Source of the DNA: Terrimonas ferruginea DSM 30193
GTDB taxonomy: Bacteria > Bacteroidota > Bacteroidia > Chitinophagales > Chitinophagaceae
Direction: 5' to 3'
DNA: 64,000 bases
NCBI RefSeq assembly: GCF_000425585.1
Contig: NZ_AUDS01000014.1
Location: 124,001 to 188,000 of the forward strand
Positions 10,691 to 14,974 of this stretch are shown here, piece by piece. The notes below the pieces were generated by a model. The model saw nothing but the letters and a program-made list of their open reading frames with translations. It did no database searches and was not told the DNA's origin. The position numbers were made by a program, and so were the translations under genes. Positions within the stretch are counted from its first letter, which is position 1. Every line of letters begins with the position of its first letter.

Positions 10691-10886
10691 AATTCAAAAG
10701 TCAAAAGTAAAAATTCAAAAAAGTGAACCGTCAATAGTCAATGGGTGAATGACGCTCCCTGCGGCGCTCGAATGGCGTGCGTGAATCGTAAATACCATGG
10801 TTCGTGTATACACGAACCATGGTGGCGGGAGAAAAACGATCAATCGTCTATAAAAGACCGGCTGTCGACTTATAACTTAAAACTTA
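10691..10886. repeat. composite intergenic repeat with a 30-nt palindrome
   Basis: Begins with phased heptads ATTCAAA, AGTCAAA, AGTAAAA, ATTCAAA, continues with GTSAATN words and then a perfect 30-nt palindrome at 10794-10823 (half-site ACCATGGTTCGTGTA). It ends in ACTTAnn words (TTATAACTTAAAACTTACTAC) that run into the stop codon of plsC. A near-copy of the palindrome is at 47613-47640. Confidence 0.85.
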
Positions 10887-11645
10887 CTACTTAATCCAGC
10901 TCGCTTTGTAAAACCGCAGCCGCTCCTCCATATACGTATGCACTAGTGCTTTGAGCGCCGGCAAATCTGCTTTTGTGAGACCTTCAACGGGGATTTCGTC
11001 GAGGTACACGATCCGGTTGCGGCCGGGTGTAAAAGAAAACACGCCGCCGTAATGAAGACGGTCGTAAGTATCGAGGAATAACACGGGTTTGATCGGTGTT
11101 TGCGTTTCGATGGCGAGGCGGAAGGCGCCGTCATAAAACTCTTTCAGCGGCTCGCCGGTTTCGTTGAAGGTGCCTTCGGGAAAAACGAGTACGGAAATGC
11201 CTTTGCTGATCAGCGAACGAAGGATGCGCAGACTTGCCGCGCGATTGGCAGGGCTGCTCCGGTCCACCGTTACGATGGCATTTCTGTAAATAAAACCGAA
11301 TACCGGTATGCGCGCCATTTCCACTTTGCCCAACGGGCGCACCTGCTGGTGATACGCTTTCACCAGCACGGCAGAATCGAGATAAGAAATATGGTTGTTA
11401 ACAAAAATAAACTGGCGTTGGCGGTCGTGCGGCGCTTCGTAAATGAAGCGGTGAAAGATGCCGATCAATGGAAACCAGAGGTCGGCCCAGCGGGCGCAAA
11501 GCCAGAGAATCATGTTACCACCGCGGATCTTTCCCAGAAAACTGGCGAAGATCACAAACGGAAAGATCACCAGCATGATGGCAATGAACAATACGATGGC
11601 ATACAGGCTGTAGAGCCATTGCAAAGGTTTCAGCAGCACTTTCAT
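10887..11645 (-). CDS. plsC: 1-acyl-sn-glycerol-3-phosphate acyltransferase
   Basis: A 252-residue membrane acyltransferase that makes phosphatidic acid from lysophosphatidic acid. A hydrophobic anchor spans residues 10-38. The catalytic NHxxxxD motif is NHISYLD (H85, D90), and the substrate-binding EGT lies at 157-159 in FPEGTFNETG. The last codons, AAG TAG, belong to the heptad-like ACTTAnn repeat, so the repeat supplies the stop. The start ATG overlaps the stop TGA of the upstream DUF4258 gene, suggesting translational coupling. Confidence 0.93.
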   Translation of the reverse strand: MKVLLKPLQWLYSLYAIVLFIAIMLVIFPFVIFASFLGKIRGGNMILWLCARWADLWFPLIGIFHRFIYEAPHDRQRQFIFVNNHISYLDSAVLVKAYHQQVRPLGKVEMARIPVFGFIYRNAIVTVDRSSPANRAASLRILRSLISKGISVLVFPEGTFNETGEPLKEFYDGAFRLAIETQTPIKPVLFLDTYDRLHYGGVFSFTPGRNRIVYLDEIPVEGLTKADLPALKALVHTYMEERLRFYKASWIK

Positions 11646-12171: not shown

Positions 12172-12179
12172 TATCTTTG
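12172..12179 (+). promoter_or_regulatory. -7 promoter element of mtaB
   Basis: TATCTTTG matches the Bacteroidota -7 consensus TAnnTTTG. It ends 7 nt before the ATG at 12187, so the transcript would have almost no leader. No TTG at the usual -33 spacing is seen. Confidence 0.45.
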
Positions 12180-12186
12180 CGCACTT

Positions 12187-13128
12187 ATGTCCGCACAGAC
12201 CGTCGCTTTTCATACACTTGGGTGCAAACTCAACTTTTCGGAAACCTCCGCCCTCTCGCGCATGCTTGAGCAGGAAGGCTTTGCGAAAAAGGAATTTGAC
12301 GACGTGGCGGACGTATATGTGATCAATACCTGTTCGGTTACCGACAATGCCGATAAGGAATGCCGGCAGCTGGTACGTCGTATCCAGCGTCGCGCGCCGG
12401 AAAGTTTTGTGGTGATCACGGGATGTTATGCTCAATTGAAACCGCAGGAGATCGCCTCGATCCCCGGGGTGGACCTGGTATTGGGTGCCGGGGAAAAATT
12501 CAACATTGCGCAGCACATCCGCCAACTGGCCAAAGGCGATCCCGCCCGTATCTGCAGCTGCGATATCGGCGAAGTATCTGGCTTTCACTCCTCCTATTCG
12601 ATCAACGACCGTACCCGCACCTTTCTGAAAGTGCAGGACGGATGTGACTATAACTGTTCTTTTTGCACCATTCCGCTGGCGCGTGGCAAAAGCCGCAGCG
12701 ACAGTATCGCCAATGTGGTAAAGCAGGCGGAGGAGCTGGCGGTGGCCGGTGCAAAGGAAATTGTGCTCACGGGCATCAACCTCGGCGACTTCGGGAAGGG
12801 TCCTGATGGTGCCGGAGCGCCGGTGAGTATACAATACCGTGAAGAAAACTTCTTTCAACTGGTGCAGGCTTTGGAAAAAGTGGAAGGCATTTCGCGTTAC
12901 CGCATCTCTTCTATCGAACCCAACCTGCTGACCAATGAGATCGTGGAATTTGTGGCCAACAGCGACAAATTCATGCCGCACTTTCATATCCCGTTGCTAG
13001 GCCGAAACTTCGGCCCGAAGTGTCGGGCCTTACCCCTTATGCCTTACGCCGGCTGTTTACTTAAAACTTATTACTTAGTACTTACTACAGTCTCCATGCA
13101 ACTTTTCGAACGCCAATTTGTCTTTTAG
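12187..13128 (+). pseudogene. mtaB: mtaB, 3' third replaced by repeat DNA
   Basis: The first 270 codons are a standard MtaB, the radical-SAM methylthiotransferase that makes ms2t6A37 in tRNA. The N-terminal MTTase cysteines C13, C49 and C80 and the radical-SAM cluster C153-x3-C157-x2-C160 (DGCDYNCSFC) are intact. After HFHIPL (about 12996), where the family continues with QSGS, the frame enters hairpin and ACTTAnn repeat DNA and adds 43 unrelated residues. The rest of the barrel and the TRAM domain, roughly 150-170 residues, are missing. The product is probably inactive. An assembly collapse at the repeat is the main alternative. Confidence 0.88.
12997..13097. repeat. hairpin plus ACTTAnn repeat inserted in mtaB
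   Basis: Starts with two adjacent hairpins, GGCCGAA-AC-TTCGGCC and CCCGA-AGTG-TCGGG. It continues with CTTANNCC-type words and ACTTATTACTTAGTACTTAC. These word types otherwise occur only in intergenic spacers of this window, for example 42375-42420 and 47210-47270. Confidence 0.8.
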
Positions 13129-13134
13129 AAAGAG

Positions 13135-13425
13135 ATGAAAAAATACCAGGTCACCATATCATTCGAAATGGGCGAAGATTTTAACGAACTCATTCCCCCG
13201 CACCGCACGTATATCAATTTCCTGATCAACAAGGAAATCATTGATCAATATGTTGTGAGCATTGACTCACAGCAGGTATGGATCACCCTGAACGCCGGGG
13301 ATGCGGCGGAAGTGGAGAAAATATTAGAGAAAAGCCCCCTCGCCCGTTACTGGTCGTACCAAATCTATGAATTGTTTGTCTGGGACGGTCAGCATTACCG
13401 TCTGCCGGCCGTACAGCCCAACTGA
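13135..13425 (+). CDS. small ferredoxin-fold protein (YCII / muconolactone-isomerase-like)
   Basis: A 96-residue soluble protein starting MKKYQVTISFEMGEDF, with a good purine-rich site (AGAAAGAG) just before the ATG. The pattern is strand-helix-strand-strand-helix-strand. The central HRTYINFLINKEIIDQYVVS and the helix AAEVEKILEKSPL resemble dimeric alpha-beta-barrel proteins of the YCII/muconolactone isomerase type. No catalytic residue can be named. It follows the broken mtaB by 6 nt and may depend on its promoter. Confidence 0.72.
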   Translation: MKKYQVTISFEMGEDFNELIPPHRTYINFLINKEIIDQYVVSIDSQQVWITLNAGDAAEVEKILEKSPLARYWSYQIYELFVWDGQHYRLPAVQPN

Positions 13426-14695: not shown

Positions 14696-14770
14696 GGGAG
14701 TTTAGCTCAGTTGGTTCAGAGCATCTGCCTTACAAGCAGAGGGTCGGCGGTTCGAGCCCGTCAACTCCCA
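14696..14770 (+). tRNA. tRNA-Val (anticodon TAC)
   Basis: A complete cloverleaf. Acceptor stem GGGAGTT (14696-14702) pairs with AACTCCC (14763-14769), with discriminator A 14770. The D-arm is GCTC...GAGC. Anticodon stem TCTGC/GCAGA closes the loop CTTACAA, giving anticodon TAC (Val, codon GTA). The T-arm is GGCGG-TTCGAGC-CCGTC. CCA is not encoded. It has its own promoter and terminator. Confidence 0.97.
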
Positions 14771-14775
14771 CGGAT

Positions 14776-14838: not shown

Positions 14839-14974
14839 ATCTGCCTTACAAGCAGAGGGCGTGTCCCACCCTAGCGGATCGGCATCCCGACACTTCGGGA
14901 CGATCCCGGGGCTTCGGTCCGAGACTTCGGTCCGAGACTTCGGACCCGATTATTCGGGTGTCAACTCCCACGGA
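14839..14974 (+). pseudogene. decayed second tRNA-Val copy with hairpin insertion
   Basis: Two blocks are identical to the intact tRNA-Val: the anticodon arm (14839-14859, same as 14723-14743) and the 3' acceptor strand with flank (14960-14974, same as 14760-14774). The 5' half is gone. The T-arm region is expanded by 84 nt holding four hairpins with CCCGA/TCGGG or CCGA/TCGG type stems (loops CACT, GACT, GACT, TTAT). A weak terminator-like hairpin, CTTCACA-GTA-TGTGAAG, follows. It cannot form a tRNA. Confidence 0.85.

What the first reader, a model, noticed from the sequence alone, without database searches (positions are those of the whole stretch)
12990..13130. mtaB truncated by intergenic-type repeat DNA
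Codons 1-270 are a normal MtaB with all six cluster cysteines. Then hairpin and ACTTAnn repeats begin and about 150-170 residues are missing. Either the repeat family moves into or deletes genes, or the assembly joined two repeat copies and lost the piece between. If real, t6A37 methylthiolation should be absent unless a second mtaB exists.
Basis: partly seen in the sequence, partly recalled or inferred. Interest (0 to 1): 0.68.

Follow-up and report, generated by a model that had tools for sequence, protein, structure and literature searches.

The report
tRNA-modification gene cut short by repeats
A bacterial gene for a tRNA-modifying enzyme has lost about its last 37 percent, and the gap up to the next gene is filled by short repeats of a kind that normally sits between genes; it looks like one recent, real deletion.

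Summary
Codons 1-270 of a normal mtaB (12187-12997) run straight into a palindrome/heptamer mosaic (12998-13086); about 159 codons are gone, and the right edge (13098) is a motif shared with relatives before the next gene. The lost part was not found elsewhere in the 4.69 Mb assembly; only MiaB and RimO match. mtaB matches in 289 of 294 family genomes (this one and contig-cut copies counted). A simple misjoin is unlikely: the longest exact copy of the junction found in the own-genome DNA held is 35 bp, and 0 of 20 contig ends inspected lie in such arrays. The kept part shows no decay, so the break is recent, or an artefact. Arrays sit between genes in 24 of 25 sampled clusters, and the junction cuts a repeat unit, so I read this as a deletion from mtaB into an array already in the spacer, not as general gene invasion. 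However, similar palindromes lie inside broken second copies of several tRNA genes here, which keeps 'the repeat moves into genes' alive. Heptamer arrays are a known kind (MacGregor 2015); this genome has about ten times more ACTTANN arrays than any of 58 relatives searched.

The parts
12172..12179 (+). TATCTTTG, Bacteroidota-type promoter element just before mtaB (name recalled)
   Evidence: located; the same or a similar word stands before mtaB in L040-L045
12187..12997 (+). mtaB 5' part, codons 1-270 plus one base; UPF0004 aa 6-100, radical SAM match aa 148-198
12998..13029 (+). two overlapping palindromes GGCCGAAACTTCGGCC and GGCCCGAAGTGTCGGGCC; left edge of the repeat DNA. In 11 of 13 other copies TAGGCC is preceded by CCT (unit CCTTAGG), which is missing here
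   Evidence: fold z -2.0 as DNA (8 of 200 shuffles as good) and -1.5 as RNA (20 of 200), both modest
13028..13050 (+). three CCTTANN heptamers
13051..13058 (+). GGCTGTTT linker word, recurrent in the family
13059..13086 (+). four ACTTANN heptamers
13087..13097 (+). short stretch of unknown origin
13098..13122 (+). GCAACTTT ... ATTTGTC, motif shared with five relatives before orf96, probably its promoter (ECF-like, inference)
12187..13128 (+). read-through ORF: 270 MtaB residues + 43 residues coded by repeat and spacer, stop at 13126-13128
13135..13425 (+). orf96, conserved downstream neighbour of mtaB, function unknown
   Evidence: found in 24 of 109 relative mtaB loci, some of which are cut short; no NCBIfam or Pfam match

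Best explanation
mtaB is a recent pseudogene. A palindrome/heptamer array had settled in the spacer between mtaB and orf96, as such arrays have in many spacers of this genome. A single deletion of roughly 540 bp then ran from codon 271 into a CCTTAGG unit at the foot of the array's palindrome, removing the last third of the radical-SAM domain, the C-terminal region and the stop, and leaving orf96 with its upstream motif. The palindrome at the junction may have helped (fork stalling or strand switching; inference). What is left lacks part of the expected SAM site and the whole C-terminal region, so ms2t6A37 should be missing. Shown: truncation, junction structure, no 3' part and no second mtaB found in the assembly, shared flanks, lack of decay. 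Inferred: order of events, size of the deletion (from the sister's spacing), role of the palindrome, loss of activity.
For: MtaB match stops at aa 270. A C-terminal profile from 5 relatives finds only C20 and C5 in the own genome, which are MiaB and RimO above their cut-offs. 56 of the 58 other genomes have mtaB; of 29 relative loci read, 27 run 414-428 aa from the match start and 2 end at contig ends. In the sister G001 the spacer is 100 bp, has no array, and carries the same GCAAC-N17-GTC motif before orf96. TAGGCC is preceded by CCT in 11 of 13 other copies, so the junction cuts a unit three bases in, as expected of a deletion ending in a resident array. 24 of 25 clusters of three heptamer types in 464 kb lie between genes (21 wholly, 3 overlapping a stop by 3-7 bases), the mtaB one being the exception. 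The kept part has 0 changes at columns invariant in the other 84 sequences and 2 at columns 90% conserved; 49 of 85 sequences have 2 or fewer (a few genes are in the set twice). A mosaic of palindromes and two heptamer types could hardly have built up inside the gene without the rest decaying, so it was probably there before.
Against: No reads and no second strain were available. The ancestral spacer array itself is not seen: G001 has none. Pairwise alignment of the right flank is weak on its own (5 of 200 and 7 of 200 shuffles score as high for the two best relatives, 36 or more of 200 for the other 11); the case rests on the spaced motif, found in the window and 5 of 13 relatives examined. 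No clear microhomology at the junction. Palindromes of the family do sit inside tRNA gene copies, so they can land in gene sequence.
Confidence: 0.6

Rival explanations
1. The repeat family itself broke the gene: a palindrome/array was copied into mtaB at codon 271 and the sequence to its right was lost or replaced in the same or a later event.
For: In the same genome palindromes of this kind lie inside broken second copies of tRNA genes with tRNA sequence on both sides: tRNA-Val at 14839-14974, tRNA-Pro at C1:68985-68909, tRNA-Met and tRNA-Leu(TAA).
Against: In those tRNA copies only a few to about 16 bases are replaced where both sides are clear, not some 540. The tRNA copies are spare and may have been dead before. 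In 464 kb no other called gene holds an array beyond its stop, and the one other palindrome inside a called gene is within background. The junction cuts a unit instead of starting one. No transposase was looked for.
Confidence: 0.2
2. Assembly artefact: the real genome has an intact mtaB and the assembler jumped.
For: The kept part is not decayed, as expected of an intact gene. A 500-600 bp missing fragment could have been dropped by a contig length filter. The sampled stretch of C1 holds one 230-N gap, so the assembly is probably scaffolded.
Against: mtaB sequence is joined directly to the palindrome at a place where relatives have none, so a collapse of two repeats would first need a repeat inside mtaB. 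The longest exact match of 12950-13140 in the own-genome DNA held is 35 bp; the best other copy in the whole-genome search is 89% over 91 bp, with 40 of 317 first-look candidates scored. 0 of 20 contig ends (10 of 30 contigs) lie in a tandem array; several share other repeated sequence. The window has no N.
Confidence: 0.12
3. The shortened protein still works, and the truncation is tolerated because function is kept.
For: The kept part is as conserved as in full-length relatives; the promoter word is intact.
Against: Pfam Radical_SAM spans 149-330 in the sister's protein and the window's copy ends at 270; what follows is lost, including the GVDVIVGFPGE stretch, invariant in 4 of the 5 relatives and nearly so in the fifth (SAM contact, recalled). 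The 27 uncut relatives read have 414 aa or more.
Confidence: 0.05

Closest known systems
MtaB / YqeV, tRNA t6A37 methylthiotransferase (TIGR01579)
   Same: N-terminal UPF0004 domain, both cysteine triads, 80% identity to the sister's MtaB and 86% to the nearest locus over codons 1-270
   Different: Ends at residue 270 of about 430; scores 257 bits under the 357 cut-off
Intergenic heptamer direct repeats (TAACTGA arrays, MacGregor 2015, PMC4679880; abstract, found passages and section 24 read)
   Same: 7-nt tandem units, mostly intergenic, patchy among relatives, tolerated at the ends of ORFs
   Different: Units here are ACTTANN, CCTTANN and TGAATNN with two free positions, combined with GC-rich palindromes; one array stands in a broken gene
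REP / BIME palindromes (PMC1525189, PMC3116915, PMC2817692; search listing and start of abstract only)
   Same: Short palindromes, many copies, extragenic
   Different: Short arms, mixed with heptamers; a RAYT-type transposase was not looked for
Rickettsia palindromic elements (recalled; PMC2694212 seen as a search listing only)
   Same: Palindromes that end up inside genes
   Different: Here 16-18 nt instead of about 100-150 nt (recalled), and in mtaB the gene is lost, not extended in frame

Membership tests
MtaB (TIGR01579) | UPF0004 domain with three cysteines | tested here: met
MtaB (TIGR01579) | radical SAM CX3CX2C motif | tested here: met
   C153, C157, C160
MtaB (TIGR01579) | complete radical SAM domain and C-terminal region; curated cut-off 357 bits | tested here: not met
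   profile 1-256 of 416, 257 bits; compare
MtaB (TIGR01579) | makes ms2t6A37 | not testable with these tools
   needs nucleoside mass spectrometry
Intergenic heptamer direct-repeat arrays | tandem 7-nt units | tested here: met
Intergenic heptamer direct-repeat arrays | located between genes | tested here: met
   24 of 25 clusters in 464 kb, 3 of them overlapping a stop by 3-7 bases; the mtaB one is the exception
Intergenic heptamer direct-repeat arrays | unit TAACTGA | tested here: not met
   units at 13059-13086 are ACTTANN
REP/BIME | palindromes enriched outside genes | tested here: met
   CCCGA-N2-6-TCGGG in 464 kb: 18 intergenic, 2 in genes (one is mtaB's); 19 permuted arms: 0-2 intergenic and 0-5 in genes each
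REP/BIME | cognate RAYT (Y1) transposase in the genome | not tested
   no search spent on it

The most novel reading that the evidence does not exclude
A family of tiny palindromes (about 16 nt, YCCCGANNNNTCGGGR) together with heptamer arrays spreads in this lineage and can replace gene sequence. Read by eye, in a copy upstream of tRNA-Leu(TAA) two separate GAC triplets are replaced by 16-nt palindromes (a second, nearly identical copy is a duplicate of the same event); palindromes stand at the T arm in copies of tRNA-Pro(TGG), tRNA-Met and tRNA-Val; and mtaB would be the first protein gene caught.
Probability: 0.3. Interest if true: 0.65.

Novelty: new member of a known kind. Interest (0 to 1): 0.35.

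Why it matters
The truncation itself is an ordinary gene loss: 5 of 294 family genomes lack mtaB by this search, and ms2t6A is not found in E. coli (PMC7408541, passages). It is useful as a recent event, because an undecayed gene fused to an intergenic mosaic suggests that such arrays can take part in real deletions. The wider lead is the palindrome-bearing tRNA copies, where the parent sequence is known and sits next door, so insertion site, lost bases and spread of these very short repeats can be read directly.

Tried and rejected
Loss of a tRNA with the deletion: 7 of 52 relative loci scanned have a tRNA-Val(GAC) just after mtaB, and none of the 40 tRNAs called in this genome is Val(GAC). 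But the pattern search (up to 3 mismatches) finds it in only 10 of 59 genomes and not in the sister G001, whose spacer has none, so nothing ties its absence to the deletion.

Second mtaB or a displaced 3' part: none found (the weak C1 hit is HemW-like). Other truncated mtaB in the family: the six partial matches examined (G024, G095, G096, G218, G303, G304) end at or within 30 bp of contig ends, so they are no parallel case; G091, G102 and G014 match over nearly the full length. In one search the match rows were listed only for about the best half of the 294 genomes; the E-value was shown for each, and I followed up those weaker than about 1e-170, one more (G014) as a check, and the five without a match. 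A truncation beyond roughly residue 300 in an unlisted row could have escaped.

dN/dS: synonymous sites are saturated or undefined against most relatives, so only the conserved-column test was used. Rows set aside before counts: the two contig-end relatives L014 (a stop 12 bp before the contig end) and L016 from the length range. Genes come from my own ORF and hexamer caller, not from an annotation. The own-genome DNA was a part (fetched loci, 400 kb of C1 and the window). One search held eight references: LuxR regulator, sigma factor and GTP cyclohydrolase II show intact C-terminal domains; the acyltransferase (plsC-like), DnaJ and DUF748 matches lie away from the C-terminus and say nothing about the end; one protein and one 61-aa fragment had no match. 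Papers on such repeats in Chitinophagaceae or on palindromes in tRNA copies: none seen in the listings, which cover only the held library.

Full report
What is there. The window is G000:C8:124001-188000 of a 4.69 Mb, 30-contig assembly rated 99.99% complete. Its nearest relatives by search are Chitinophagaceae and allied Chitinophagales (record titles; placing the window's organism there is inference). ORF 12187-13128 codes 313 aa. Its first 270 residues are MtaB: TIGR01579 positions 1-256 of 416, 257 bits under a cut-off of 357, UPF0004 and the start of the radical SAM domain, with cysteines at 13, 49, 80, 153, 157 and 160. Base 12997 is the last mtaB base. From 12998 come two overlapping palindromes, three CCTTANN heptamers, GGCTGTTT and four ACTTANN heptamers to 13086. 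The frame happens to stay open through this and stops at 13126-13128.

What is missing. In the sister genome G001 MtaB has 430 aa, so 159 residues are lost, including the last part of the radical SAM domain, which Pfam places at 149-330 in the full protein. A profile of the missing part from five relatives finds only two places in the own genome, and those proteins are MiaB (444 bits, cut-off 355) and RimO (447 bits, cut-off 357). So no displaced piece and no second mtaB were found in the assembly.

How unusual. mtaB is found in 57 of 59 genomes (own included); the two misses are 72% and 83% complete. In 294 family genomes at least 95% complete (own included), 289 match at E 1e-90; the other five have only hits at the level of MiaB and RimO. 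Six genomes with partial matches end at or within 30 bp of contig ends. Among the cases examined G000 is the only one with mtaB cut inside a contig; rows for about half of the 294 were not listed, only their E-values.

The right side. orf96 (13135-13425) was found in 24 of 109 relative mtaB loci. The window and five of 13 relatives examined share GCAACnTT and TGTC (TTGTC in the window and four of the five) with identical spacing (25 nt over all), 35-37 nt before the start. Pairwise alignment statistics alone are weak (5 of 200 shuffles score as high for the best). So the repeat DNA, with 11 bases of unknown origin, reaches to this motif at 13098. In G001 the spacer is 100 bp and free of repeats. 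By that geometry about 540 bp were lost and about 100 bp stand in their place.

The repeat family. ACTTANNx3 has 705 overlapping matches in this genome, 55 in G001, at most 71 in any other of 58 relatives, and none in 41 of 59 genomes. The reversed pattern gives 244 in this genome because another heptamer family, TGAATNN, is also present. In 464 kb (400 kb of C1 plus the window) 25 clusters of ACTTA, CCTTA or TGAAT arrays were found: 21 between genes, 3 overlapping a gene's stop by 3-7 bases, and 1 in mtaB (my own gene calls). The palindrome CCCGA-N2-6-TCGGG occurs 18 times between genes and 2 times inside called genes (one is mtaB's) in the same DNA, while 19 permuted arms give 0-2 between genes and 0-5 inside genes each. 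Three genes abutted by arrays for which Pfam could tell keep intact C-terminal domains: LuxR regulator, sigma factor, GTP cyclohydrolase II. So arrays are spacer DNA as a rule.

The junction. In 13 other copies of the palindrome that begin TAGGCCGA, 11 have CCT to the left, making the heptamer CCTTAGG. In mtaB that CCT is missing: TTGC is followed by TAGG. So the break lies three bases inside a repeat unit, as a deletion ending in an existing array would give.

Artefact or real. An assembler needs shared exact words to misjoin. The longest exact match of 12950-13140 in the own-genome DNA held is 35 bp, and the best other copy in the whole-genome search is 89% over 91 bp (40 of 317 candidates scored). 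None of 20 contig ends from 10 contigs lies in a tandem array; several ends share the same other sequence, so longer repeats seem to break this assembly. A collapse of two repeat copies would also need a repeat inside mtaB first. I give the artefact 12%.

Age. Over 264 columns the window sequence has no change at a column invariant in the other 84 sequences and two at columns conserved at 90%; 49 of 85 sequences have two or fewer. The gene part is undecayed, so the break is recent. A mosaic of palindromes and two heptamer types could hardly have been built inside mtaB in that time, which is a further reason to prefer deletion into an array already in the spacer. This step is inference.

The result that speaks for the other route. 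1.8 kb away, at 14839-14974, lies a broken second copy of tRNA-Val(TAC): 21 and 15 nt identical to the intact gene at 14696-14771 and its 3' flank, with the 16 nt between them replaced by 100 nt of palindromes. On C1 a broken second tRNA-Pro(TGG) has a 16-nt palindrome TCCCGAAGTGTCGGGA where the intact gene has ATCC. A scan of 40 tRNA genes with flanks lists matching pieces of at least 12 nt outside the genes beside nine of them (the shortest may be chance). By inspection these are broken copies of eight tRNA types: Val, Pro(TGG), Met, Phe, Leu(TAA), Asp, Leu(CAG), Pro(GGG). Palindromes of the CCCGA...TCGGG kind stand in the Val, Pro(TGG), Met and Leu(TAA) copies; the inserts in the others are related or different palindromes. 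Two copies upstream of tRNA-Leu(TAA) show two palindromes each; they are 113 of 115 bases identical, so they count as one event, and the automatic alignment splits the inserts differently from my reading. These tRNA copies may have been dead before the palindromes came. They show that the family can sit inside gene-derived sequence, and they keep the insertion rival at 20%.

Comparison with print. Heptamer arrays in spacers are known: MacGregor 2015 (PMC4679880; abstract, passages and section 24) describes TAACTGA arrays in Beggiatoaceae, Cyanobacteria and five Bacteroidetes, notes that forward copies carry stops in all frames, and that insertion in coding sequence seems to have succeeded mainly at its periphery. 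The unit here differs. ms2t6A is made by MtaB in B. subtilis and is not found in E. coli (PMC7408541, passages), so its loss is survivable.

Verdict. The finding itself is ordinary; the palindrome-bearing tRNA copies are the part worth following.

Noticed in passing
window 14839-14974: Broken second copy of tRNA-Val(TAC) with 100 nt of CTTCGG palindromes in place of 16 nt of the T-arm region; intact copy at 14696-14771.
   Followed up: partly
G000:C1:68985-68909; L281:618-680; L270:303-370; L284:79-109, 705-725, 820-840; L271:958-982; L286:610-700; L293:615-672: Broken tRNA gene copies beside intact tRNA genes, most with short GC-rich palindromes between tRNA segments; read by eye, two GAC triplets of tRNA-Leu(TAA) are replaced by 16-nt palindromes in one (duplicated) copy.
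   Followed up: partly
whole genome G000: About tenfold more ACTTANN heptamer arrays (705 matches) than any of 58 relatives searched; the sister genome has 55.
   Followed up: partly
window 10868-10893: A heptamer array overlaps the end of the acyltransferase (plsC-like) gene on the minus strand and supplies its stop codon.
   Followed up: no
window 13098-13122 and the same place in L009, L067, L042, L052, L031: GCAACnTT and TGTC with identical spacing, 35-37 nt before the conserved gene of unknown function orf96; looks like an ECF sigma promoter.
   Followed up: partly
L042, L043, L023, L031, L052, L067, L069: tRNA-Val(GAC) lies just after mtaB, on either strand, in some relatives; not found in this genome or its sister.
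   Followed up: yes
L260 (G303:C10 end) and L261 (G218:C89 start): Two genomes of one genus both have a contig end inside mtaB near codon 204, perhaps an insertion there.
   Followed up: no
L286:1139-1217: An ARAGORN-called tRNA-Pro(GGG) whose D arm reads as replaced by the palindrome CCCCGTCTTTGGCGGGG compared with the second Pro(GGG) gene at L286:1497-1571.
   Followed up: no
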